From: Pseudotabrizicola algicola
Lineage (GTDB): Bacteria > Pseudomonadota > Alphaproteobacteria > Rhodobacterales > Rhodobacteraceae
NCBI RefSeq assembly: GCF_010915705.1
Contig: NZ_JAAIKE010000006.1
Location: 124,001 to 188,000 of the forward strand
Length of the DNA stretch: 64,000 nt
Reading direction: 5' to 3'
Shown piece by piece: positions 34,120 through 45,993 of this stretch. A model generated the notes under the pieces. It saw only the letters and a list, made by a program, of their open reading frames with translations, ran no database searches and was not told the DNA's origin. The first letter of the stretch is position 1. Each line of letters opens with the position of its first letter. Position numbers and translations under genes: made by a program.

Positions 34120-34797
34120 TCAGCGCGGTGTCCGCGCCGCGATCTGTCGGGCAAGATATCGGCCGATGACAGCTGACCCTTCAACCGAAGGATGGGTGTT
34201 GTCGGCCGCGAACAAGGACGTGTTGCTTGCGTCAAACACGTCCTCGCTATCGACAAAGAAGACGCCGTCCATCATCTGCGCATGCAAGGCAATGCGGCGC
34301 TCCAACTCCACAAGCCCCGGGCGGCAGCCCCGGAAAGACCGTGACTGCGGCGCGGCGTAATACCCGGCCCAGAGCACCCGCGCGCCACGTCCGCGCGCGG
34401 CAGAGATCAGGTCAGGGATCACACCTGTCCTGCCGTCTTTCGATATCAGCCGGTCTATCTCGGCCTCGCACCTCGTGCAGCCGCAGGTCAGGCCCAGATC
34501 ATTGGCGCCGCCGTTCATGACCACCCAGTTCCAGCGCCCCGGCGGCAATTGCGCCGGAATGTTCAGCCCTCCGAACCGCCCGATGCCCCCGCGCCCCAGA
34601 CGCGCGCCCAAAGCGGCATGGTTCACCACCTCGCGCCGCAATTCGGCACTGATCACGCGCCCCACATCGCCGCCCGCGCCCCTGTTCCACGCCAGAACAG
34701 AATCTCCGATCACAAGAATGTCGCCATCCGTCTGTCTGGATGCCAGCCCGCAGCCGCACAGAACCAGCACAAGGCACAGAACAGTCACAACACGCAT
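34120..34797 (-). CDS. SGNH/GDSL-type esterase lipoprotein
   Basis: This 225-residue protein is started at ATG 34797, where GGGG is 6 bases upstream. A lipoprotein signal ends in LVLCGCG. The SGNH blocks are present: block I VIGDSVLAWN (nucleophile Ser), block III NGGANDL, and block V DNTHPSVEG (Asp and His). A cysteine pair in LTCGCTRC is unusual and may form a disulfide. It probably deacetylates or hydrolyses an envelope ester. It converges with the small acidic gene. Confidence 0.85.
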   Translation of the reverse strand: MRVVTVLCLVLVLCGCGLASRQTDGDILVIGDSVLAWNRGAGGDVGRVISAELRREVVNHAALGARLGRGGIGRFGGLNIPAQLPPGRWNWVVMNGGANDLGLTCGCTRCEAEIDRLISKDGRTGVIPDLISAARGRGARVLWAGYYAAPQSRSFRGCRPGLVELERRIALHAQMMDGVFFVDSEDVFDASNTSLFAADNTHPSVEGSAVIGRYLARQIAARTPR

Positions 34798-34887
34798 CCG
34801 CATCCCCTGAACCGGGCGAACAGGCGGCAAAGGTAGGCGCAGACCGGCGAGGGGCAAATCAAACCCTTGTGGGGCGGGGCCTTCCGA

Positions 34888-36210
34888 TCAGGCGCGGGAT
34901 GACGCACCGGCCTGCGGCAGGCCAGCCCGCGCGCCAACGCTCCCCTGCGCCGCAATCGCATGAACGGCGCTTGCCCCCGCTTCGTAATAGGCGGCCCGCA
35001 GCCCGGCAAAGCCTTCGCGGTGCTGCCGAAGCGGATCGACGGGCAGCAGATCGGGGCGGTCCAGCAAAAGCGCACGGGCGGCCTGCGTGCCAAACACGGT
35101 TCCGGGGCCGATGCCGCGGCCGGAATATCCGAAACACGCATAGGCCTGCGGGCCAAAGGCCACGATCTTGGGAATATGATCGCCCGTCATCGCAATGCGC
35201 CCGCTCCAGCCATGACGGAACGGCAGGCCCGCAAGGTCGGGAAACAGCCGCGCCAGCTTGCGCGCCGCCCATGCGGCATGCACGCGCCCGGCCGGTCCAT
35301 CCCCGTTGCCGATGCCGCCGATGACCAGACGGCCCGCCTGATCCAGCCGGAACGAGGACATGACCAGCGCGGTATCCCAACACCCTTCCCCACCCGCGAG
35401 GATAGAGCGGCGCAGCGGCTCGGGCAGCGGATCGGTCGCATATTGGCAATAGTGGACGCCGACAATCTGCGGCGCAAAGGGATCATGAAAACCCAGATGG
35501 TAGGCATTGGTGGCCACCAAGACATGACGGGCGCGCAGGCTCTGCCCGCGCGAGGTGACCTGCCACTGGCCCGCCGCACGCTGCAGACCGGTGACGGGGC
35601 TTTGCTCATGCACCTCCGCTCCGGCCCGCACCGCAGCCCGTGCGAGCCCGCGCGCGTAGGACAAGGGCTGGATCGTTCCGGCCCGCGGATCAAACAGCGC
35701 CCCATGAAAGGCGCGGCTTCCGGTGCGGCGCGCCGTCTCCGCCGCATCGAGAAGCCGCAGCGGCGCACCATGCGCCCTGCCTTGGCGATAGCGTTCCTGC
35801 AGGTCACGCAGTCCTGCGGGGGCATGGGCCAAGTGCAAGGTGCCATTGCGGGTCGCTTCGCAATCGATCCCCTCGCGCGCGATCAGGTCGAACACCCGCT
35901 GCGGCGCCTCGGCCAGCGTGTCAATCAGACGCTTGCCCCCTGTCGGTCCCATCCGGGCAATCACCGCCTCGGGTGGCAGCCAGAGCCCCGCGTTGACAAG
36001 CCCCACATTGCGGCCCGACCCGCCATGCCCCACCGTCTGCGCCTCGAGCACGCAAACCGAGGCTCCGTGCCGCCGCGCCTCCAAAGCGGCGGCAAGGCCG
36101 GTGAACCCGCCGCCGATCACCGCAAGATCGACCTCGCGGCTCGTCGCCAGTGGCGGGGCCGCGAAATGCTCGCGGCTGGAAGCCCGCCACAGATTGACCT
36201 CAGAACTCAA
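34888..36210 (-). CDS. FAD-dependent amino-acid oxidase (DAO family, AmaA/PuuB-like)
   Basis: This 440-residue flavoenzyme starts best at TTG 36210, preceded by GGGGG at 6 bases and overlapping the end of the aldehyde dehydrogenase gene by 11 bases. The dinucleotide motif is VIGGGFTGLAAALEARRHG, then EAQTVGHGGSGRNVG, and a C-terminal GYSGRGIGPGTVFG flavin loop. The family oxidises secondary or N-substituted amines. Next to an ALDH7 gene, L-pipecolate oxidase (AmaA) is the most attractive role, but gamma-glutamylputrescine oxidase-like activity cannot be excluded. Confidence 0.85.
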   Translation of the reverse strand: MSSEVNLWRASSREHFAAPPLATSREVDLAVIGGGFTGLAAALEARRHGASVCVLEAQTVGHGGSGRNVGLVNAGLWLPPEAVIARMGPTGGKRLIDTLAEAPQRVFDLIAREGIDCEATRNGTLHLAHAPAGLRDLQERYRQGRAHGAPLRLLDAAETARRTGSRAFHGALFDPRAGTIQPLSYARGLARAAVRAGAEVHEQSPVTGLQRAAGQWQVTSRGQSLRARHVLVATNAYHLGFHDPFAPQIVGVHYCQYATDPLPEPLRRSILAGGEGCWDTALVMSSFRLDQAGRLVIGGIGNGDGPAGRVHAAWAARKLARLFPDLAGLPFRHGWSGRIAMTGDHIPKIVAFGPQAYACFGYSGRGIGPGTVFGTQAARALLLDRPDLLPVDPLRQHREGFAGLRAAYYEAGASAVHAIAAQGSVGARAGLPQAGASSRA

Positions 36211-37702
36211 ACCGGACCCCCTGCGCCAAGGGCAGATGTGCCGAATAGTTGATGGTGTTGGTCTGGCGGCGCATATAGCCCTTCCATGCATCCGATCCGC
36301 TTTCGCGCCCGCCACCGGTTTCCTTCTCTCCGCCGAACGCCCCGCCGATTTCCGCGCCTGATGGCCCGATGTTCACATTCGCGATGCCGCAATCCGACCC
36401 TGCTGCCGAAAGGAAGGTTTCGGCCTCGCGCAGGTTCAGCGTGAAAATGCAGGACGACAGGCCCTGAGGCACATCGTTTTGCAAGGCGATGGCCTCATCG
36501 AAGCTGTCATAGCCAAGTACATAAAGGATGGGCGCAAAGGTTTCCTCGCGCACGGTGTCGGTCTGGGCGGGCATCTCGATCAGCGCAGGTTCGACATAGG
36601 CACCGCCCGCAGGCACGCCATCGGTCACCACGCGGCCGCCATGAACGCGGCCGCCTTCGCCGCGCGCCTTCTCGATCTGCGCCAGCATCCGGTCGCGGCT
36701 GGCCGCATCGACCAAGGGGCCGACCAGCGTTGACCCCTTGCGCGGATCGCCGATCGGCAAGGAGGCATAGGCTGCCGTCAGCCGCCCGACCAGTTCGGCA
36801 CGGATCGAGTTATGCACGATCAGCCGCCGCAAGGTCGTGCAGCGCTGTCCCGCCGTTCCCACCGCAGAAAACACGATGGCGCGCACCGCCATGTCCAGAT
36901 CGGCGGACGGGGCCACGATCATCGCATTGTTGCCGCCAAGCTCCAGAATCGACCGCCCCCAACGCGCGGCAACCTTCGGCCCCACGATGCTGCCCATCCG
37001 CGTCGATCCTGTGGCAGAGATCACCGGAACCTCGCGCGATGTGACCAGCGCCTCCCCCACCGCAGGCCCGCCGATCACCAGCTGGCAAAGCCCCTCGGGG
37101 GCATCGTCACCAAACCGGTCCAGCGCGCGCTGCATGATCTTCATGGTGGCAAGCGCGGTAAGCGGTGTTTTCTCGGACGGTTTCCAGATCACCGGATTGC
37201 CGCAAACCAGCGCCAGCGCCGCATTCCACGACCAGACCGCAACGGGAAAGTTGAAGGCCGAGATCACGCCCACAGGCCCCATCGGGTGCCATGTTTCCAT
37301 CATGCGATGGCCCGGACGTTCCGAGGCGATGGTCAGCCCGTAAATCTGGCGCGACAGCCCGACCGCGAAGTCGCAGATGTCGATCATCTCCTGCACTTCG
37401 CCCAAGCCTTCCGACGTGATCTTGCCCGCCTCCAGCGTCACCAGAGCGCCAAGCGCCGCCTTGGAGGCGCGCAACTCCTCCCCCAGCAGCCGCACAAGCT
37501 CGCCCCGGCGCGGGGCGGGAACATTGCGCCACGCCTTGAACGCGGCTTGCGAGCGGGCAATCACCGCTGGCATTCCGCCCGCTTCCGTCTCCTGCAACTG
37601 CGCGACAACCGCCCCGTCAATCGGCGATCGGACGGCCAAGGTGCCACCCGTCAGTTCGGCAGCCTGCAGCCCTGCTGCCTCGAGAATTTCGGCGTGGTCC
37701 AT
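36200..37702 (-). CDS. ALDH7-type aldehyde dehydrogenase (aminoadipate semialdehyde / piperideine-6-carboxylate)
   Basis: This 500-residue NAD-dependent enzyme of the ALDH7/antiquitin group starts at 37702 with AGGAG 6 bases upstream. The catalytic C288 is in GTAGQRCTT and the general base E254 in LELGGNN. The characteristic GGAFGGEKETGGGRESGSDAWK stretch (seen in parts) near the C-terminus is typical of AASADH/AmaB. It would oxidise 2-aminoadipate 6-semialdehyde, in equilibrium with piperideine-6-carboxylate, to 2-aminoadipate. One base separates it from the upstream acyltransferase gene. Confidence 0.9.
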   Translation of the reverse strand: MDHAEILEAAGLQAAELTGGTLAVRSPIDGAVVAQLQETEAGGMPAVIARSQAAFKAWRNVPAPRRGELVRLLGEELRASKAALGALVTLEAGKITSEGLGEVQEMIDICDFAVGLSRQIYGLTIASERPGHRMMETWHPMGPVGVISAFNFPVAVWSWNAALALVCGNPVIWKPSEKTPLTALATMKIMQRALDRFGDDAPEGLCQLVIGGPAVGEALVTSREVPVISATGSTRMGSIVGPKVAARWGRSILELGGNNAMIVAPSADLDMAVRAIVFSAVGTAGQRCTTLRRLIVHNSIRAELVGRLTAAYASLPIGDPRKGSTLVGPLVDAASRDRMLAQIEKARGEGGRVHGGRVVTDGVPAGGAYVEPALIEMPAQTDTVREETFAPILYVLGYDSFDEAIALQNDVPQGLSSCIFTLNLREAETFLSAAGSDCGIANVNIGPSGAEIGGAFGGEKETGGGRESGSDAWKGYMRRQTNTINYSAHLPLAQGVRFEF

Positions 37703-37703
37703 G

Positions 37704-38735
37704 TCAATCTCCTTTGGTGACAAGGCGGCGCTGGTCGTCCATGCCCATCGAGACAAGGACAGGGGCCGCAGTCTGCGCTGTCTGGAAGTCCGTCTTGGAC
37801 CGCCAAGAGCGCCAGTTGGCGAGGATAAGGCTCTGCGCAACCGCGCCGCCCAATGTGGTGCCGGGGCCTGTGATGATGAACAGGTCGGGCGCAAACTCGC
37901 GCGCGGCATGGGTTATGGCCCGCGTGAAATCATACGCCTCGGTCACCTGATGGCCCAGCGTGTAATCCCATAGCGCCTGCGGATCGACCGCCCCCGGCCA
38001 CCAGACATGGCCGCGCCCGTCGACGAGCGGCAGGTCGGGCTGCCCGAACAGCGCGGGCGACAGGCGGGCGCGGCCTTCGGCGGCAACCGGCGCCTGCAGG
38101 GCGGTGTGAAAGGCGGCGTGATTGGCAAGGCGCATGGGAAAGCGCCCCTGCACAGGGGGCACCGCCGCCTCGAACGCACTCAGCCCCGCCTCATTCCCCG
38201 CCAGCACCAGCATTCCGCCCAGATCGATCGACAGGCCAAGGCTATGGCCTGCACGCGCACCAATCGCCGCGACCAGAGCCAAAAGCTCGGCCTTGCGGGC
38301 GGCATCGGGCCGCCAGCTTTCATCGACGAAGGGATAAATGAGCTGACCGCCGATCAGCCGCTCCTGCATGAGCGTGCCCATCGTGTTGACCACGTCAAAG
38401 CCAGCCTCTGCCGTCAGCGCCCCCGCGCAGGCAAGCGCGGAATACCAACCCATCGAATTGCCGGTGACAGCCACCACCTTCACACCGGCCAGCGCGCGGA
38501 AATCGCCGAGCGTGCTGGCATAGATCAGCGCCGACGCATTGTCGCCACGGGTGTGACGCGCAACCGAATAGCTCGCGGCCCCGTCCAGCGCGCTCAGGCT
38601 CTCTTGGCCGGCGGCGGCCCTGCGTGCATCGAAATCCGCCAGCAGCGCGGCATCCTTGAAATGCCGTTTCAGATAGCCGAGTTCGGTCTTGGTATAGGTG
38701 CCCCGTCCGGGACAGATCACAACGGCGGTTTTCAC
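37704..38735 (-). CDS. FabD-fold acyltransferase with altered substrate arginine
   Basis: This 343-residue protein is related to malonyl-CoA:ACP transacylases. The start is GTG, overlapping the E1 stop in GTGA. The nucleophile is Ser94 in TGNSMG (the usual GHSxG) and the partner is His210 in NHAAFH. The arginine that binds the malonyl carboxylate (E. coli FabD Arg117, in RGxxMQ) aligns with Met119 in NTMGTLMQ, so malonyl-CoA is an unlikely substrate. No ACP gene is nearby. Position directly after a thiamine-diphosphate E1 suggests it handles the acyl product of that enzyme. Confidence 0.8.
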   Translation of the reverse strand: MKTAVVICPGRGTYTKTELGYLKRHFKDAALLADFDARRAAAGQESLSALDGAASYSVARHTRGDNASALIYASTLGDFRALAGVKVVAVTGNSMGWYSALACAGALTAEAGFDVVNTMGTLMQERLIGGQLIYPFVDESWRPDAARKAELLALVAAIGARAGHSLGLSIDLGGMLVLAGNEAGLSAFEAAVPPVQGRFPMRLANHAAFHTALQAPVAAEGRARLSPALFGQPDLPLVDGRGHVWWPGAVDPQALWDYTLGHQVTEAYDFTRAITHAAREFAPDLFIITGPGTTLGGAVAQSLILANWRSWRSKTDFQTAQTAAPVLVSMGMDDQRRLVTKGD

Positions 38736-40924
38736 TCTGCACGCTCCATCAGGGCTTTGGCGGCGGCAATGATGCTGTCGCGCGAGGGCATGGTGGCTGC
38801 ATAGGCCGGGCCGGTGGCGATAAAGCTGTCGGTTGCCGTGATGCGGGCCAAGGGCGTGCCGGGCTGGCTTTCCGCGAAATGCGCCATCAGCGCTTCGGCC
38901 ACCCCGCCGCTCTGGCGTGTCTCGTCGACGATCAAGATCCGCTTGGCGCCCGCCACAGCCGAAGTCAGCGCCGCAGCAGGCAAAGGGGAAAGCCAGCGCA
39001 TATCGATGATCCGTGTGGCAATCCCCGCTTCGGCCAGCGCAGGTTCGGCCTGATGCGACAGGTAAGTGCCGTTGCCGAAGGTGACGATGGCCAGATCCGC
39101 GCCCGCGCCATGAACCCCCACCTCGCCCAAAGGAATGACCTGCGACGGTTCGGGATAGACGCGCATCCAGCCGCCATCCTTGTCATGATGCAGGTCGCGC
39201 ATCGGATACAGCGCGATGGGTTCCAGAAACACCACCACCCGCTGCTCCTCCCGCGCAAGCCGCACCGCTTCGCGCAGCATCATCGCCGCATCCGCGCCGT
39301 TTGACGGACAGGCCAGGATAAGGCCCGGAATGTCCCGCAAGACGGCGACCGAATTGTCGTTGTGGAAATGCCCGCCAAATCCCTTCTGATACCCCAGCCC
39401 CGCGATGCGCAGCACCATCGGGTTGGTGTATTGCCCGTTCGAGAAAAACGGCAGCGTGGCCGCCTCGCCGCGCAACTGGTCTTCGGCATTGTGCAGATAG
39501 GCCAGAAACTGGATCTCCGGCATCGGCACGAAACCATTCTGTGCCATGCCGATCGCAAGCCCCAGAATCGACTGCTCGTCCAGCAGCGTGTCGATCATCC
39601 TGTCGGGGCCAAAGCGCGCCTGCAACTTTTGCGTGACGCCATAAACCCCGCCCTTGCGCCCCACATCCTCCCCCATCATCACGATCTCGCGGTGTGCAAG
39701 CATCAGGTCGGTCAGCGCCCAGTTGATGAGCCGCGACATGATCTGCGGCTCGGCCATCTGCTTCATGTCGCTACCGAAGGCCTCGGCGCGCGCCTCGGGC
39801 GTGGGGCCGTTGGTGGGCTTGCACGTCCGCCGCGGCGGGATGAGCGAGGCCATGACATCGGCAGCCGTTTTCAGACGCGGCCGGGTGACAGCCTCGGCGG
39901 CGATACGGGCCACACGGTCATTGGTGTCTATGTAAATCCTGAGCGCGGCATCCGGCGTCAGCGCACCCGATTGCGCCAGCCCCCGCACCATGTGTAGCAG
40001 CGGGTCCTGCGCCTCTTCCGCCTCCACCTCGGCCTTGCTCAGATAGGTGGTCGGCACATCGGCACCGGCATGGCCATAAAGCCGGATCGTGCGCACATGC
40101 AAAAACGCGGGCTTGCGCCGCAGACGCACGAACTGGGTGGCCTTGAGTGCGGTGGCATAGGTGTCAAAGATGTCCAGACCGTCACAAGCGAAATAGGCCA
40201 GACCGGGACGATGCCTGAAACTGGCTTCGATCCACCCCTCCGGCGTCTTGGTCGAGATGCCGATGCCGTTATCCTCGCACACGAAGAGCAGCGGCAGCGG
40301 CACGGCCTGATAGGCTGTCCATCCGGCTGCGTTGAAGGCCCCCTGGGCGGTGGAATGGTTGGCCGAGGCATCACCAAAGCTGCAATAGACGATGGCATCA
40401 TCGGGCAATTCGGCATGTTCGGGCCGATGCCTGCGTGCCGCGCCAATCGCATAGGCCGCCCCCACCGCCTTAGGCAGATGGGAGGCGATGGTGGAGGTCT
40501 GCGGCGGAATGTTCAGCGCCTTGGACCCCAGAACCTTGTGCCGGCCACCGGAAATCGGGTCTTCGGAAGATGCCGCGAAGGACAGCAGAAAATCCCACGC
40601 GACCGACTGGCCCGGCACTTGCGCGGCGCGCGCGATCTGGAAGGCGGCATCACGGTAATGCAGGAAAGCCATATCGGTGGGCCGCAAGGCTGCGGCAATC
40701 GCGGCCAGACCTTCGTGGCCCGATGACCCGATGGTGTAAAACCCCTGCCCCGCCCGCTGCATCTCGCGGCTTTGCCGATCAAGCGCCCGCGAAAGGCAAG
40801 CCGCGCGGTAGATGCCGACCGCTGTCACCGCATCCAGCGGGCCATCGGGCGCGCGGCCCTGCGGAAAATCCTGTGCCGCGACACGGCGCAGGAAGTTGTC
40901 GTGAACGATCGCGCTGCGGTCCAT
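38732..40924 (-). CDS. Fused 2-oxoacid dehydrogenase E1 alpha/beta (thiamine diphosphate)
   Basis: This 730-residue protein joins an E1-alpha part (about 1-360) to an E1-beta part (about 385-725), as in branched-chain 2-oxoacid dehydrogenase. The TPP motif runs from GDA (184-186) to N219 in CEDNGIGIS. The beta part has MMGEDVGRKGGVYGVT, DTLLDEQSILGLAIGMA and ADLAIVTFGNG. No E2 or E3 gene lies in the operon. It overlaps the aminotransferase stop by one base (TGATG) and the acyltransferase start by four. A 2-oxoacid made by the neighbouring aminotransferase, perhaps 2-oxoadipate, is the likely substrate. Confidence 0.88.
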   Translation of the reverse strand: MDRSAIVHDNFLRRVAAQDFPQGRAPDGPLDAVTAVGIYRAACLSRALDRQSREMQRAGQGFYTIGSSGHEGLAAIAAALRPTDMAFLHYRDAAFQIARAAQVPGQSVAWDFLLSFAASSEDPISGGRHKVLGSKALNIPPQTSTIASHLPKAVGAAYAIGAARRHRPEHAELPDDAIVYCSFGDASANHSTAQGAFNAAGWTAYQAVPLPLLFVCEDNGIGISTKTPEGWIEASFRHRPGLAYFACDGLDIFDTYATALKATQFVRLRRKPAFLHVRTIRLYGHAGADVPTTYLSKAEVEAEEAQDPLLHMVRGLAQSGALTPDAALRIYIDTNDRVARIAAEAVTRPRLKTAADVMASLIPPRRTCKPTNGPTPEARAEAFGSDMKQMAEPQIMSRLINWALTDLMLAHREIVMMGEDVGRKGGVYGVTQKLQARFGPDRMIDTLLDEQSILGLAIGMAQNGFVPMPEIQFLAYLHNAEDQLRGEAATLPFFSNGQYTNPMVLRIAGLGYQKGFGGHFHNDNSVAVLRDIPGLILACPSNGADAAMMLREAVRLAREEQRVVVFLEPIALYPMRDLHHDKDGGWMRVYPEPSQVIPLGEVGVHGAGADLAIVTFGNGTYLSHQAEPALAEAGIATRIIDMRWLSPLPAAALTSAVAGAKRILIVDETRQSGGVAEALMAHFAESQPGTPLARITATDSFIATGPAYAATMPSRDSIIAAAKALMERAE

Positions 40925-42102
40925 CAGGTATCCCCGTTCAAAGCTCTGGCCAGGCGGTCAAGGCCCGTCTGCAACTCACTCTCGGCATAGGCAAAGGACA
41001 GGCGCAAGTGTCCGGGCAATCCGAACGCCCGCCCCGGAACGAGGGCCAGATCATGCTCGGCCAGCAGCCAATCGCAAAATGCAGCGTCTGTCGCATGGCC
41101 TTGGGCCTGCATCGCCCCCGTGATACGCGGAAAGACATAGAAGGCCCCATCGGGCGCGGCGCATTCGATGCCGGGCATCGCATCGAGTGCCGACACCACC
41201 AGATCTCGCCGTGCGCGCATGGCGTCACGCCGGACATCCAGCACCTCGGTCCCGCCCGTCAGCGCCGCTGTCGCGGCGGCTTGCGCGATGGAACAGGCCC
41301 CCGAGGTGACCTGCCCCTGCACCGCCCCCATGGCACGGATCAGATCGACAGGGCCGATCCCCCAGCCGATCCGCCAGCCCGTCATCGACCATGCCTTCGA
41401 TACGCCATTCACCGTCAGCAGCCTGCCGCGCAGGTCCGGTGCGACATCGGCAAGGCGATGAAACGGGATGAAATTGAGATGCTCGTAAATCTCATCCGAA
41501 AGCACCCAGACCTGCGGGTGCCGCAGCAGCACCGCCTCCAGGGCCGAAAGTTCGGCAGGGCTGTAGATCGCGCCCGACGGATTTGACGGCGCGTTGAGCA
41601 TCAGCCAGCGCGTGCGCGGCGTCAAGGCGGCCTCCAGCGCTGCAGGGGTCAGCTTGAAGCCGTCCGCCATTGCACAGGAAACGATCACGGGGCTGCCGCC
41701 TGCCATGCGCACGATATCGGCATAGCTCGTCCAGAACGGCGCGGGCATCACCACCTCATCACCGGCTTCCAGCGTCGCCAGCATCGCATTGGCGATCACC
41801 TGCTTGGCCCCGCAAGATACGATCACCTGATCCGGCCTCGCCTTGGCATCCGCTGCAATCGCCGCGCGCAACTCTGCCGTGCCAAGCGTGGGGGTATAGC
41901 GTGTCTTGCCGTCCGTCGCAGCCTTGTGCGCCGCCGCGATCACCGCCTCGGGCGTCGGAAAATCGGGCTCTCCTGTCGACAGGGCCACCACATCATGCCC
42001 CAGCGCCTTGCGCGCAGCCGCGCGTTCGGAAATCTGGACAATCTCTGAAATCTCCAGACCCCGGATACGGGCAGCGCGGTGAAACTCTGGCGAGTCGAGC
42101 AT
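40924..42102 (-). CDS. PLP-dependent class I aminotransferase
   Basis: This 392-residue protein is an AspC-like fold type I transaminase. The PLP lysine is K236 in NGVSKAWSMTGWRIGW, with the preceding LNAPSNPSGAIY and VLSDEIYEHL motifs and the C-terminal RLSFA carboxylate-binding arginine. It is the first gene of a five-gene operon, with the LysR gene divergent at 96 bases. In this context, 2-aminoadipate to 2-oxoadipate is plausible; sequence alone does not fix the substrate. Confidence 0.92.
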   Translation of the reverse strand: MLDSPEFHRAARIRGLEISEIVQISERAAARKALGHDVVALSTGEPDFPTPEAVIAAAHKAATDGKTRYTPTLGTAELRAAIAADAKARPDQVIVSCGAKQVIANAMLATLEAGDEVVMPAPFWTSYADIVRMAGGSPVIVSCAMADGFKLTPAALEAALTPRTRWLMLNAPSNPSGAIYSPAELSALEAVLLRHPQVWVLSDEIYEHLNFIPFHRLADVAPDLRGRLLTVNGVSKAWSMTGWRIGWGIGPVDLIRAMGAVQGQVTSGACSIAQAAATAALTGGTEVLDVRRDAMRARRDLVVSALDAMPGIECAAPDGAFYVFPRITGAMQAQGHATDAAFCDWLLAEHDLALVPGRAFGLPGHLRLSFAYAESELQTGLDRLARALNGDT

Positions 42103-42198: not shown

Positions 42199-43101
42199 AT
42201 GATCGCCCCAAGACGCTTTTTGCCATCCGTGAGTTCGCTCCTCGCGCTCGAAGCGGTCGACAGGCTCGGAACGGCCATCGCAGCGGCAAGCGAGCTGTCC
42301 CTGACCCATTCCGCGATCAGCCGACAGCTCAAGGCGCTGCAAGACCAGATAGGCGTCGCGCTTTTGCACCGCGACGGCAAAGGGCTCGCACTGACGCCTG
42401 CGGGCAAGGAATATGCCGCCTCGACGCGCGAATACTTGCAGCATCTGGCCCGCGCCAGTCTCAAGATACGTGCGGCGGGCGAGCAAAGCAGCCTGAACCT
42501 CGCGGTGCTGCCGGCCTTTGGCACCCACTGGCTGCTGCCGCGACTCTACCGCTTTTCGGCCCAGCATCCCGACATCACCGTAAACCTCGGCACGCGGCTG
42601 GCCCCCTTCGACTTCAGCCGCGAAGGGTTTGACGCGGCGATCCATTTTGGCGCCCGGAACTGGCCGGGGGTCGATTACCTTGCGCTGGCCAGCGAAGAGA
42701 TCATCCCCTCCGCCGCCCCCTCCTTGGTGCCGCAGGCCCCGCTTGCCCCGCGCCAGTTGCTGGACATGCCGCTGCTGCACCTCGAAAGCCGCCCGGGCGC
42801 GTGGGAAGACTGGTTTGCCCGCCACGGCTGCGATGCGGGGCATCTGCATGGCATGCTGTTTGACCAGTTCACCCAGATGGCCGAAGCAGCCGCCCTCGGC
42901 TTCGGAATCGCGCTTCTGCCAAGGTTTCTGGCCGAAGCCGAGTTCCGGTCGGGCCGGCTTCGCCCTGCCGTCACCGGCTTCACGACGGTGGACGGGCGCT
43001 ACTTTGCGGTTTGGCCACAAATCCGCCCGCCCAGCCGTGCCTTGCAACAGTTGCTGCACTGGCTGGAGCAGGACAGCCAAACCGTGCAAGGCCCGGGCTG
43101 A
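42199..43101 (+). CDS. LysR family transcriptional regulator (GcvA-like)
   Basis: This 300-residue regulator has an N-terminal winged HTH (about 10-70; AAASELSLTHSAISRQLKALQDQIG in parts) and a LysR effector-binding domain (about 95-295) with NWPGVDYLALASEE. GGAGA is 9 bases before the ATG. Its divergent position makes it the probable activator of the aminotransferase/E1/ALDH operon; the shared 96-base spacer must contain both promoters. Confidence 0.93.
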   Translation: MIAPRRFLPSVSSLLALEAVDRLGTAIAAASELSLTHSAISRQLKALQDQIGVALLHRDGKGLALTPAGKEYAASTREYLQHLARASLKIRAAGEQSSLNLAVLPAFGTHWLLPRLYRFSAQHPDITVNLGTRLAPFDFSREGFDAAIHFGARNWPGVDYLALASEEIIPSAAPSLVPQAPLAPRQLLDMPLLHLESRPGAWEDWFARHGCDAGHLHGMLFDQFTQMAEAAALGFGIALLPRFLAEAEFRSGRLRPAVTGFTTVDGRYFAVWPQIRPPSRALQQLLHWLEQDSQTVQGPG

Positions 43102-43148: not shown

Positions 43149-44273
43149 TTACAACAGCCCGCGCGCGGCAAGGTTGGTCATCAGGGCCCGCGCCCCGAAA
43201 GTCCATTCGGCGCAGCGGGTCGACAGCGTCACGCGGTTGCGCAAGGTGCCAAGCGCCTCCGAGGAAATCGTGACCACATCGCCAAGATGGTGCGTGAACC
43301 CCGCCCCCGCCTCGCCACGGTCCTTTGTGGGGGCAAACAGGGTGCCCAGAAACAGCATCAGCCCGTCCGGATACTGGTGGTGCCGCCCGATGGTCTGCGC
43401 AACCAGATCCTCGGGGTCGCGGCTGATCTGCGCCATCGAGGATTGTCCTTCCAGAACAAAGCCATCCTCTCCCTCCACTCGCAGCGCGAGTTCGGCCTTG
43501 CGCACATCCTCCAGACCGAACCCTGCATCGAACAGGCGGATGAAGGGTCCGATGGCACAAGACCCGTTGTTATCCTTGGCCTTGGACAGCAGCAGCGCCG
43601 AGCGCCCTTCGACGTCGCGCAGGTTCACGTCATTGCCCAGCGCCGCCCCCACGATCTGCCCGCGTGATGAGACCGCCAGCACGACCTCGGGCTCGGGATT
43701 GTTCCACTTCGACACGGGGTGCAGGCCGATTTCTGCCCCATGCCCGACAGAGGACAGCACCTGCGCCTTCGAAAACACCTCTGCGTCAGGTCCGATGCCA
43801 ACCTCCAGATACTGGCTCCAGAGCCCTTCGGCGATCAGGGCCGCCTTGACCGCCATCGCCTCGGCAGACCCGGGCCTGATGTTGCGCAGGCTGTCACCGA
43901 TCGCGGCGCCCACACGGGCGCGGATGGCTTCGGCCCGCGCCGGATCACCGCTCGCGCGTTCCTCGATCACGCGCTCCACCATCGACCCGGCAAAGGTCAC
44001 GCCGCAGGCCTTCACCGCCTGCAAATCGCACGGGGCCAGCAGATGCGGCCGCCCCATATCCCCGACAGCCGCCGCCATCAGATCTTCGAGCGTGCCGATA
44101 TCCCGCCCCTCGGCGGATTGCACATATCCCGCAGGGTCCTCCATCTCGCAGATGTCGCGCACCAGAGGCGCCGCGCGGCAGGTGATGTCGATCACCCGGC
44201 CCTGCCGCAGCGTGATGACCGAAGGGCCGCCCGCCTCTGGTGACCAAATCCGTCCGATCACTGTTCCGTCCAT
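43149..44273 (-). CDS. Fumarylacetoacetate hydrolase-family protein
   Basis: This 374-residue protein has an N-terminal extension (about 1-90) and a FAH catalytic domain. Metal ligands and signatures are visible in EIGLHPVSKWNNPEPEVVLAV (in two parts), GNDVNLRDVEGRSALLLSKAKDN and GDVVTISSEALG. Family members hydrolyse C-C bonds or dehydrate 2-keto-3-deoxy sugar acids; the length and N-terminal part favour a sugar-acid dehydratase-like or unassigned subgroup. It is alone on its strand, 83 bases after the Lrp gene ends. Confidence 0.85.
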   Translation of the reverse strand: MDGTVIGRIWSPEAGGPSVITLRQGRVIDITCRAAPLVRDICEMEDPAGYVQSAEGRDIGTLEDLMAAAVGDMGRPHLLAPCDLQAVKACGVTFAGSMVERVIEERASGDPARAEAIRARVGAAIGDSLRNIRPGSAEAMAVKAALIAEGLWSQYLEVGIGPDAEVFSKAQVLSSVGHGAEIGLHPVSKWNNPEPEVVLAVSSRGQIVGAALGNDVNLRDVEGRSALLLSKAKDNNGSCAIGPFIRLFDAGFGLEDVRKAELALRVEGEDGFVLEGQSSMAQISRDPEDLVAQTIGRHHQYPDGLMLFLGTLFAPTKDRGEAGAGFTHHLGDVVTISSEALGTLRNRVTLSTRCAEWTFGARALMTNLAARGLL

Positions 44274-44356
44274 GGCCCTGCCTTCCCGCGTTGCCCGATC
44301 TTTGCCGCAGGTTGCGACACTCTGCGCAGGGCATCAACCCTCTGCGGCGCCAGACG

Positions 44357-44833
44357 CTAGAAAGACAAAAGCGCGTTGTCCTTCACTTCCTTGAGCACAA
44401 AGAAGGTCCGGATCTGCCGCACCCCCGGCAGGGAAATCAGCTGCCGCCCGTGAAGCAGGTTGAACCCCGCCATGTCGCGGACCCGTATCTTGAGCAGATA
44501 ATCGAAATCGCCCGCGACAAGGTTGCAGTCCAGCACTTCCTTCATCGCGCCCACCGCCGCCTCGAATGCGGCAAAGCTTTCGGGGGTCGAGCGGTCCAGC
44601 ACCACCCCGACCATCACCAAGGCACCAAGCCCCACCGCAGCGGGGGCAACCTGAGCACGGATCGCGGTGATATAGCCTTCGTCCAGCAGGCGCTGCGTGC
44701 GGCGGTGGCAGGTGGGGGCGCTGACATTCACCAGTTTGGCAAGATCGGCATTGGCAAGACGCCCGTCCTTTTGCAGCGCCCGCAAAATGTTACGGTCGAT
44801 TCGGTCGAGATCACCTGTTGAGGATTCTTTCAA
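44357..44833 (-). CDS. Lrp/AsnC regulator, probable AcdR-type activator of acdS
   Basis: This 158-residue protein has HTH (LDRIDRNILRALQKDGRLANADLAKLVNVSAPTCHRRTQRL, in parts) and RAM domains. The only usable start is TTG at 44833. It is divergent from acdS over a 140-base AT-rich spacer. That arrangement is well known for AcdR, an Lrp homologue that activates ACC deaminase genes. Confidence 0.88.
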   Translation of the reverse strand: MKESSTGDLDRIDRNILRALQKDGRLANADLAKLVNVSAPTCHRRTQRLLDEGYITAIRAQVAPAAVGLGALVMVGVVLDRSTPESFAAFEAAVGAMKEVLDCNLVAGDFDYLLKIRVRDMAGFNLLHGRQLISLPGVRQIRTFFVLKEVKDNALLSF

Positions 44834-44973
44834 TTAAGTTACCAAATCTTGATTCTGTCTAATGTTCATACGGCTTCCATAAAATAAAAGAAAAAAACAA
44901 GCCACAACTATGAAATCGCGTCATCGCGCCTTCCTGTTACGCTGCCTGCAAGGCGAAACACAGGAGACCCCGC

Positions 44974-45993
44974 ATGTCGCTTCTTGAAAAATTCGAACGT
45001 TATCCGCTGACCTTCGGCCCCACGCCCATCGAACACCTGCCGCGCCTGACCGAGGCTTTGGGCGGAAAGGTGCAGATTTACGCCAAGCGCGACGATTGCA
45101 ACTCCGGCCTTGCGATGGGCGGCAACAAGCTGCGCAAGCTGGAATACATCGTTCCCGATGCGATCAAATCGGGGGCCGATACGCTTGTCTCGATTGGCGG
45201 CGTGCAGTCCAACCACACGCGGATGGTGGCGGCAACGGCCGCCAAGATCGGCATGAAATGCGTCGTGGTGCAGGAAAAATGGGTGCCGCACTTCGATGCC
45301 GTCTATGACCGCGTCGGCAACATCCTGATGACGCGGCTCATGGGGGCAGACTCGCGGCTTGTCGATGATGGCTTCGACATCGGCATCCGGCAAAGCTGGG
45401 AAAACGCGATCCAGTCGGTGAAAGATGCGGGCGGGGTCCCCTATCCGATACCGGCAGGGGCCAGCGTCCACAAATATGGCGCGCTCGGCTATATCGGATT
45501 TGCCGAAGAGGTCGCCGCGCAGGAAAAAGACCTCGGCTTCACCTTCGATTACATCGTGGTCTGCGTGGTGACAGGCTCGACACAGGCGGGCATGATCGTG
45601 GGCTTCGCGGCGCAGGACCGCGCGCAAAGCGTCATCGGCATCGACGCCTCCGGCACGCTCGAGCAGACCCGTGCGCAAGTCCGGCAGATCGTTGACAACT
45701 CGGCGGAACTGGTTGGCCTTGGCCGCAAGGTGCGCGACGATGAAATCGTCATCAATCCCGACTACGCCTACCCCGCCTATGGCGTTCCGTCGGACGAGAC
45801 GAACGAGGCCATCCGGCTTGCGGCCCGGACCGAGGCGATGATCACCGATCCGGTCTATGAAGGCAAATCGATGCAGGGCATGATCGATCTGACGCGCAAG
45901 GGCTTCTTCCCCGAAGGCTCAAGGGTGCTTTACGCCCATCTGGGCGGCGCACCAGCGCTTAACGGCTACAGCTACTACTACAAGGAAGGCTGA
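44974..45993 (+). CDS. acdS: 1-aminocyclopropane-1-carboxylate deaminase
   Basis: This 339-residue fold type II PLP enzyme splits ACC to 2-oxobutyrate and ammonia. The PLP lysine is K52 in [10 protein letters not shown]. The two residues that separate true ACC deaminases from D-cysteine desulfhydrases are both of the deaminase kind: E296 (VYEGKSM) and L323 (AHLGG). AGGAG is 8 bases before the ATG. The gene is followed by an intrinsic terminator and then an AceE-like gene. ACC deaminase lowers plant ethylene, so plant or algal contact is plausible. Confidence 0.95.

What the first reader, a model, noticed from the sequence alone, without database searches (positions are those of the whole stretch)
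34888..42102. Five-gene overlapping operon joining an AmaA/AmaB-like pair to an aminotransferase, a fused E1 and a FabD-fold acyltransferase
Seen: five genes on one strand with spacings of -1, -4, +1 and -11 bases, and a divergent LysR gene. Known: FAD pipecolate oxidase plus ALDH7 is the lysine/pipecolate route to 2-aminoadipate in pseudomonads. Inference: the aminotransferase makes 2-oxoadipate, and the E1 with the acyltransferase replaces the usual E2/E3-dependent step or the HglS route. An E1 feeding a serine acyltransferase would be an undescribed way to handle the acyl group.
Basis: partly seen in the sequence, partly recalled or inferred. Interest (0 to 1): 0.78.

Follow-up and report, generated by a model that had tools for sequence, protein, structure and literature searches.

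The report
Lysine-breakdown operon with paired acyltransferase
This bacterial operon very likely breaks down lysine by way of 2-oxoadipate and glutaryl-CoA, and its unusual feature is an uncharacterised serine acyltransferase that is tied to the 2-oxoadipate-decarboxylating enzyme and may hand over the glutaryl group.

Summary
The five-gene operon and divergent LysR gene are real, with the stated spacings. In relatives the fused E1 lies near piperideine-6-carboxylate dehydrogenase, an aminotransferase, an AmaA-like oxidase or a lysine/saccharopine-dehydrogenase-like gene. Glutaryl-CoA dehydrogenase, when nearby, is directly upstream of E1 (74 of 75 loci in partly overlapping sets). E1 is thus probably the 2-oxoadipate E1 (inferred, about 0.85). 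The acyltransferase (AT) has the FabD fold and invariant Ser and His, but lacks FabD's carboxylate-binding Arg. It was found only beside E1, overlapping by 4 bases in 133 of 152 loci. Yet 37 of 91 E1-bearing genomes show no AT, apparently through repeated loss, and E1 keeps its active-site histidines either way. So "replaces E2/E3" is disfavoured. E1 site R340, and less surely W110, varies with AT, hinting at docking. Best reading: AT is an E1-dedicated glutaryl-transfer partner working with shared E2/E3. Nine paper searches found no description.

The parts
40924..42102 (-). class I aminotransferase, proposed 2-aminoadipate aminotransferase (inferred)
   Evidence: Aminotran_1_2 239 bits; a relative lies near E1-AT in 12 of 54 family and 23 of 80 named loci
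38732..40924 (-). alpha/beta-fused ThDP E1, proposed 2-oxoadipate dehydrogenase E1; W110 at 40597-40595, H285 at 40072-40070, R340 at 39907-39905, H519 at 39370-39368
   Evidence: Pfam E1_dh + Transket_pyr + Transketolase_C; GCDH directly upstream in 74 of 75 loci with GCDH nearby, sets partly overlapping; AF2 model pLDDT 85.8
37704..38735 (-). FabD-fold serine acyltransferase (AT) dedicated to E1; Ser94 at 38456-38454, His210 at 38108-38106
36200..37702 (-). L-piperidine-6-carboxylate dehydrogenase (AmaB/Pcd, ALDH7 type)
   Evidence: NF050084 810.9 bits, over cut-off 730
34888..36210 (-). AmaA-like FAD oxidoreductase, proposed L-pipecolate oxidase
   Evidence: DAO 209 bits; NF050086 403.6 bits, best model but below its cut-off 600
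42199..43101 (+). divergent LysR-type regulator (GcvA-like)
   Evidence: LysR_substrate and HTH_1; NF008352 221 bits, below cut-off 288; LysR-like genes lie divergently upstream in many of the loci listed

Best explanation
The operon encodes the lower arm of lysine catabolism. L-pipecolate is oxidised by the AmaA-like oxidase to piperideine-6-carboxylate, which the ALDH converts to L-2-aminoadipate. The aminotransferase makes 2-oxoadipate. The fused E1 decarboxylates 2-oxoadipate and reductively glutarylates a lipoyl group on a shared E2 (OGDH or PDH), with E3 re-oxidising it, as human E1a/DHTKD1 does. The AT is a dedicated partner that docks on E1. With its Ser-His pair it helps move the glutaryl group to CoA, doing for a C5 dicarboxylate what the borrowed E2 catalytic core does poorly. 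Glutaryl-CoA then goes to glutaryl-CoA dehydrogenase, encoded elsewhere in this genome and next to E1 in many relatives. Shown: gene order, families, folds, adjacency, presence and absence of AT along the E1 tree, site differences in E1. Inferred: every substrate, use of shared E2/E3, docking, glutaryl transfer by AT.
For: E1 substrate. The gene upstream of E1 in Ruegeria is a GCDH by similarity (640 bits to 3gnc, 556 to human 1siq; the best match 4w9u, 681 bits, is labelled only acyl-CoA dehydrogenase; the best other ACADs score 230 or less). GCDH directly upstream in 74 of 75 loci. AT with P6CDH by genome: 35 of 55 against 36 of 240, Fisher p 1.7e-12, not corrected for kinship. Own-genome GCDH at 83%. 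AT belongs to E1: 54 of 55 AT genomes have a full E1 match, the other (G166) a partial E1 at a contig end; 4-base overlap in 133 of 152 loci. E1 position 110 is W or Y in 70 of 70 AT+ rows and W in 11 of 35 AT- rows; 13 independent pairs: 8.8 same way, 0 opposite, median p 0.004, column picked beforehand by its difference. R340: 11 to 0 in 16 pairs, max-T p 0.0011. Lipoyl route: H285, H519, H521 invariant in 70 AT+ and 35 AT- rows; only PDH and OGDH E2 found in this genome. AT catalytic pair: Ser94 and His210 in 41 of 41. PMC8146983 (passages): no cognate glutaryltransferase gene is known for human E1a, which recruits E2o/E3.
Against: No biochemical data. AT is not detected in 37 of 91 E1 genomes, so it cannot be essential for the route. 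19 of 54 family AT loci have none of the lysine markers nearby, and 20 of 55 AT genomes have no P6CDH; some E1-AT pairs may serve something else. W110 alone does not pass the all-column test (max-T p 0.18); one column reaches -8, the same size in the opposite direction; and once the overall excess of change in AT- E1s is allowed for, R340 (p 0.0018, 142 columns) and the rest do not survive correction. Faster E1 change without AT is modest against a control gene (11 of 14 and 7 of 14 pairs). The AmaA-like gene is below the AmaA model's cut-off. I did not identify the lysine-to-pipecolate genes of this genome. E1's whole-chain fold matches are not specific: OdhA and transketolases rank above DHTKD1.
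Confidence: 0.5

Rival explanations
1. One reading: E1 and AT form a self-sufficient, E2/E3-free system; E1 oxidises the enamine with some electron acceptor and AT carries glutaryl on serine to CoA.
For: Tight E1-AT coupling, E1 sites that vary with AT, no third E2 found in the genome.
Against: 37 of 91 E1 genomes keep E1, 17 of 37 beside GCDH, with no AT detected; active-site histidines invariant with and without AT. Apart from the flavoproteins GCDH and the AmaA-like oxidase I saw no recurring redox gene beside E1-AT, in ORF clusters that were partly mis-called.
Confidence: 0.1
2. AT is an editing hydrolase: it removes wrong acyl groups (or excess glutaryl) from lipoyl arms or CoA, protecting the shared E2.
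For: AT looks accessory; FabD Arg absent, which would fit water or unusual acyl acceptance; Ser-His kept.
Against: I identified no sequence feature that favours hydrolysis; Arg11 is invariant, which may point to a specific anionic ligand.
Confidence: 0.2
3. AT moves glutaryl from CoA (or E1/E2) to acyl carrier protein, feeding BioZ-type biotin synthesis or lipid making.
For: FabD family members serve ACP (recalled); BioZ uses glutaryl-CoA from lysine degradation in alphaproteobacteria (PMC7645780, passages).
Against: The same paper reports glutaryl-CoA with malonyl-ACP as the preferred BioZ pair and knows no evidence of glutaryl-ACP in cells; AT follows E1 and catabolic genes; the window operon leaves no room for a carrier gene. 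Co-occurrence with BioZ was not tested.
Confidence: 0.1
4. E1's substrate is not 2-oxoadipate; the operon serves another 2-oxo acid and lysine genes are only frequent neighbours.
For: 19 of 54 family loci lack lysine markers nearby; E1 is closest in sequence to branched-chain and pyruvate E1.
Against: GCDH directly upstream in 74 of 75 loci that have one nearby, also in gammaproteobacteria; invariant R485 and H478, and K/R at 514, near the beta-side histidines.
Confidence: 0.08

Closest known systems
Human 2-oxoadipate dehydrogenase E1a (DHTKD1) with borrowed OGDH E2/E3
   Same: Same proposed step between aminoadipate transaminase and glutaryl-CoA dehydrogenase; no dedicated E2 seen; whole-chain fold match TMq 0.65-0.68 to 6sy1 (ranks 12 and 28, below OdhA and transketolases).
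   Different: DHTKD1 is a homologue of E1o (PMC8146983, passages); this E1 is a fusion of BCKDH/PDH-type alpha and beta chains, 13% identical to 6sy1 in the fold alignment. I know of no FabD-fold partner of DHTKD1.
Branched-chain / pyruvate dehydrogenase E1 (alpha2beta2)
   Same: Pfam domains; 28-32% identity in the beta half; active-site histidines kept.
   Different: Fused chain; distinct nearly invariant loop (GGRHKVLGSKALNIPPQTSTIASH); the PDH E1 model cut-offs are missed.
FabD malonyl-CoA:ACP transacylase
   Different: 16-22% identity; the Arg column is Met119, PGQG is PGRG, GHSLGE is GNSMGW; gene tied to E1.
Pseudomonas putida D-lysine route AmaA/AmaB then HglS (DUF1338)
   Same: Pipecolate to 2-aminoadipate to 2-oxoadipate (AmaA/AmaB recalled).
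   Different: HglS makes D-2-hydroxyglutarate (PMC7286885, passages); HglS was not found in this genome.
Phaeobacter inhibens pipecolate pathway (PGA1_262p02210)
   Same: Lysine degradation through pipecolate and 2-aminoadipate, with glutaryl-CoA downstream (PMC5653290, passages).
   Different: No Phaeobacter plasmid matched this E1 or AT in the plasmid collection; its chromosome was not searched by name.

Membership tests
L-piperidine-6-carboxylate dehydrogenase (AmaB) | score over the NF050084 equivalog cut-off | tested here: met
   810.9 bits, cut-off 730
L-pipecolate oxidase AmaA | score over the NF050086 cut-off | tested here: not met
   403.6 bits, cut-off 600; called AmaA-like only
2-oxoacid dehydrogenase E1 | E1_dh and transketolase-type beta domains with alpha- and beta-side histidines | tested here: met
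Pyruvate dehydrogenase E1 | PDH E1 alpha or beta model cut-offs | tested here: not met
   134.9 vs 321, 131.2 vs 454, 111.7 vs 411.35, 81.6 vs 393.85 bits
2-oxoadipate dehydrogenase E1 | activity on 2-oxoadipate | not testable with these tools
   gene context only
FabD malonyltransferase | TIGR00128 cut-off and malonate-binding Arg (role of the Arg recalled) | tested here: not met
   36.7 bits vs 260.9; Arg column is Met119
FabD-fold acyltransferase superfamily | fold plus catalytic Ser and His | tested here: met
E2 acyltransferase of 2-oxoacid dehydrogenases | 2-oxoacid_dh catalytic domain and lipoyl domain | tested here: not met
   no Pfam family at 1e-3 in AT; it folds as FabD
HglS route | PF07063 gene in the genome | tested here: not met
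   found in 10 of 295 family genomes, not in this one

The most novel reading that the evidence does not exclude
The AT is the missing dedicated glutaryltransferase ('E2a') of a bacterial 2-oxoadipate dehydrogenase: a FabD-fold Ser-His enzyme that docks on E1 near residues 104-110 and 330-341, takes glutaryl from E1's product (a shared lipoyl arm, or E1 itself) and gives it to CoA. It would be an acyltransferase of a 2-oxoacid dehydrogenase system built on a fold unrelated to E2.
Probability: 0.35. Interest if true: 0.82.

Novelty: new variant of a known kind. Interest (0 to 1): 0.62.

Why it matters
To my knowledge few bacterial genes are assigned to the step from 2-oxoadipate to glutaryl-CoA, and for human E1a no dedicated glutaryltransferase gene is known (PMC8146983, passages). 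This E1 family is present in 91 of 295 family genomes sampled. The plasmid records call AT 'ACP S-malonyltransferase', which these data argue against. The patchy presence of AT beside one and the same E1 makes a natural experiment that could show what a second acyltransferase adds to a 2-oxoacid dehydrogenase.

Tried and rejected
HglS as a mutually exclusive alternative: no signal (1 of 10 HglS genomes has AT, Fisher p 0.69). LysDH-like gene in this genome: none found with one query at E 1e-10; that empty answer proves little. Faster E1 evolution after AT loss: AT- branch longer in 15 of 16 pairs, but by relative rate 11 of 14, with a PDH E1-beta control at 7 of 14 (Wilcoxon 0.049 and 0.76); of the 16 pairs one had no control match (G186) and one was not searched. 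Kept as weak support. Site scan: only R340 passes max-T (0.0011); W110 does not (0.18), and a column of -8 exists in the opposite direction. The output was cut, so some of its 12 columns were not seen in full. Promoter and terminator scan: 0 promoter-like sites, and terminator-like sites at the shuffled level (6 found, 6.3 expected). ORF clustering by longest ORF mis-called genes because of antisense ORFs at high G+C, and its first version stopped with an error; the counts used come from tblastn markers instead. Paper searches for this E1-AT pair or pathway listed no description; subscription papers are mostly not held. Drueppel et al. on P. inhibens was seen only as cited in PMC5653290. Four papers were seen, as passages only: PMC5653290, PMC7645780, PMC8146983, PMC7286885.
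Full report
OBSERVATION. The five genes and the divergent LysR gene are present at the stated coordinates with spacings -1, -4, +1 and -11. The ALDH is a piperideine-6-carboxylate dehydrogenase above its NCBIfam cut-off. The FAD oxidase is AmaA-like, but below the AmaA cut-off. The E1 is one chain with alpha and beta domains. The fourth protein has no Pfam family at 1e-3 and weak FabD/MdcH similarity.

DISTRIBUTION. An AT ortholog (268 bits or more; the next match scores 40.4) is in 55 of 295 genomes of the same family (counted). In draws from wider groups, which include this genome and family members, it is in 16 of 398 (phylum; 6 of the 16 same-family) and 5 of 385 (class; 2 of the 5 same-family). 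The E1 ortholog is in 91 of 295 family genomes, P6CDH in 71 of 295 (70 over the cut-off) and HglS in 10 of 295.

NEIGHBOURHOODS. I examined 54 family loci, 80 named loci (partly the same genomes), 15 loci from the phylum and class draws (two of them same-family) and 37 loci of E1 without AT. Genes present in the fetched DNA, in that order: GCDH 19, 31, 8 and 17; P6CDH 25, 49, 3 and 1; AmaA-like 7, 9, 0 and 6; aminotransferase 12, 23, 2 and 0. Lysine/saccharopine-dehydrogenase-like genes: 16, 29, 0 and 0. GCDH is directly upstream of E1 in 19 of 19, 31 of 31, 7 of 8 and 17 of 17. P6CDH is directly downstream of AT in 17 of 25, 46 of 49 and 3 of 3. At least one lysine marker is near in 35 of 54, 55 of 80, 9 of 15 and 20 of 37, so a sizeable minority is without. 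The exact five-gene content is rare (1 of 54, 2 of 80). The Ruegeria ACAD is a glutaryl-CoA dehydrogenase by similarity: GCDH structures score up to 640 bits, the best match 4w9u (681 bits) is labelled only acyl-CoA dehydrogenase, and the best other ACADs score 230 or less. In Legionella adelaidensis the E1 gene overlaps a GCDH gene and no AT is annotated in the 14 kb seen. A gene near E1-AT in several loci matches saccharopine dehydrogenase domains and the Pyrococcus PH1688 structure 3abi; that PH1688 is a lysine 6-dehydrogenase is recalled.

WHAT E1 DOES. Enzymes before 2-oxoadipate (P6CDH, aminotransferase) and the enzyme after glutaryl-CoA (GCDH) flank E1 in different combinations, and GCDH does so in alpha- and gammaproteobacteria. 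The simplest reading is that E1 catalyses the step between them. This is inference from context. The window's genome carries its GCDH elsewhere (83% to the Ruegeria protein), near the PDH operon. Only PDH and OGDH E2 genes were found in it (two PF00198 matches). Human E1a likewise has no known cognate E2 gene and recruits OGDH E2 and E3 (PMC8146983, passages).

HOW AT RELATES TO E1. AT comes with E1 in 54 of 55 genomes; in the other the E1 is cut at a contig end. The genes overlap by 4 bases in 133 of 152 loci and lie side by side in 151. The reverse is not true: 37 of 91 E1 genomes lack a detectable AT, and in one of them (G021, L242) the contig ends where AT would lie. On the E1 tree the AT label needs 18 changes, at least 11 forced by starred branches, and the deep branch of 12 rows that holds Shewanella aestuarii is all AT+. 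I read this as an old pair with many losses; FastTree and midpoint rooting limit that claim. After loss E1 often stays next to GCDH (17 of 37), and in loci such as L208, L211, L228, L230 and L239 it overlaps an AmaA-like or P6CDH gene by 4 bases. P6CDH is present in 35 of 55 AT genomes but in 7 of 37 E1-only genomes.

SITES THAT FOLLOW AT. E1 residue 110 is W (66) or Y (4) in 70 AT+ rows, and R (20), W (11), M (2), T (1), S (1) in 35 AT- rows. In 13 phylogenetically independent pairs it goes the same way 8.8 times and never the other way, median p 0.004, range 0.001-0.06; the column was chosen for its difference. Over all 730 columns in 16 pairs, R340 stands out (11 to 0, max-T p 0.0011); columns 104, 110, 36, 341 and 689 tie next at 8 (max-T p 0.18), and one column reaches -8 in the opposite direction. 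Residues 330, 337, 340 and 341, all among the top columns, lie on one predicted helix (324-346), and 110 on helix 108-121. Once the general excess of change in AT- rows is allowed for (1161 against 905), no single column survives correction. I take this as suggestive of a docking face, not proof. A relative-rate check against PDH E1-beta gave 11 of 14 pairs faster without AT for E1 and 7 of 14 for the control.

MECHANISM. Because E1 is kept without AT in many genomes, and keeps H285, H519 and H521 in every row, a lipoyl-dependent E1 using shared E2/E3 is the likelier base mechanism. PMC8146983 (passages) describes two such histidines of P. putida E1b as potential proton donors to the lipoyl group; which residues here match them exactly is my judgement. 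AT is then an accessory that improves or protects glutaryl transfer. Alternatives are an E2-free system, an editing hydrolase and a glutaryl-ACP supplier. The last is weakened by the report that BioZ prefers glutaryl-CoA and that glutaryl-ACP has not been seen in cells (PMC7645780, passages).

LITERATURE. Lysine degradation through pipecolate and 2-aminoadipate, with glutaryl-CoA downstream, is reported in Phaeobacter inhibens (PMC5653290, passages). Nine searches for this pathway or for an E1-acyltransferase pair listed no description.

VERDICT. Observation confirmed; interpretation partly supported. E1 as 2-oxoadipate E1: about 0.85. AT acting in glutaryl transfer: about 0.4 to 0.5. AT with E1 replacing E2/E3: about 0.1.

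Noticed in passing
window 34120-34857 (-): GDSL-type hydrolase gene starting 30 bases after the oxidase gene on the same strand; possible sixth operon gene.
   Followed up: partly
window 43149-45993: FAA-hydrolase-family gene, Lrp/AsnC regulator and a divergent PLP-dependent enzyme (PALP, resembles ACC deaminase or D-cysteine desulfhydrase by eye) beside the operon.
   Followed up: partly
L207 and L224, after E1: E1 without AT overlaps unrelated-looking genes (a gluconolactonase-like ORF by 4 bases; a hydantoinase-like ORF by 1 base, both judged by eye), suggesting E1 recruited elsewhere.
   Followed up: no
L141, L143, L152, L153, L156, L160, L165: In Erythrobacteraceae-type genomes the E1-AT pair shows no lysine markers nearby in the cluster map and is followed by a receptor-like gene (TonB type by eye).
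   Followed up: no
L245 6001-8199: A 47% identical E1 stands alone in Nonomuraea gerenzanensis; neighbouring ORFs look unrelated by eye.
   Followed up: partly
G000:C1, locus L243: The genome's glutaryl-CoA dehydrogenase gene lies about 4 kb after the PDH E2 gene.
   Followed up: partly
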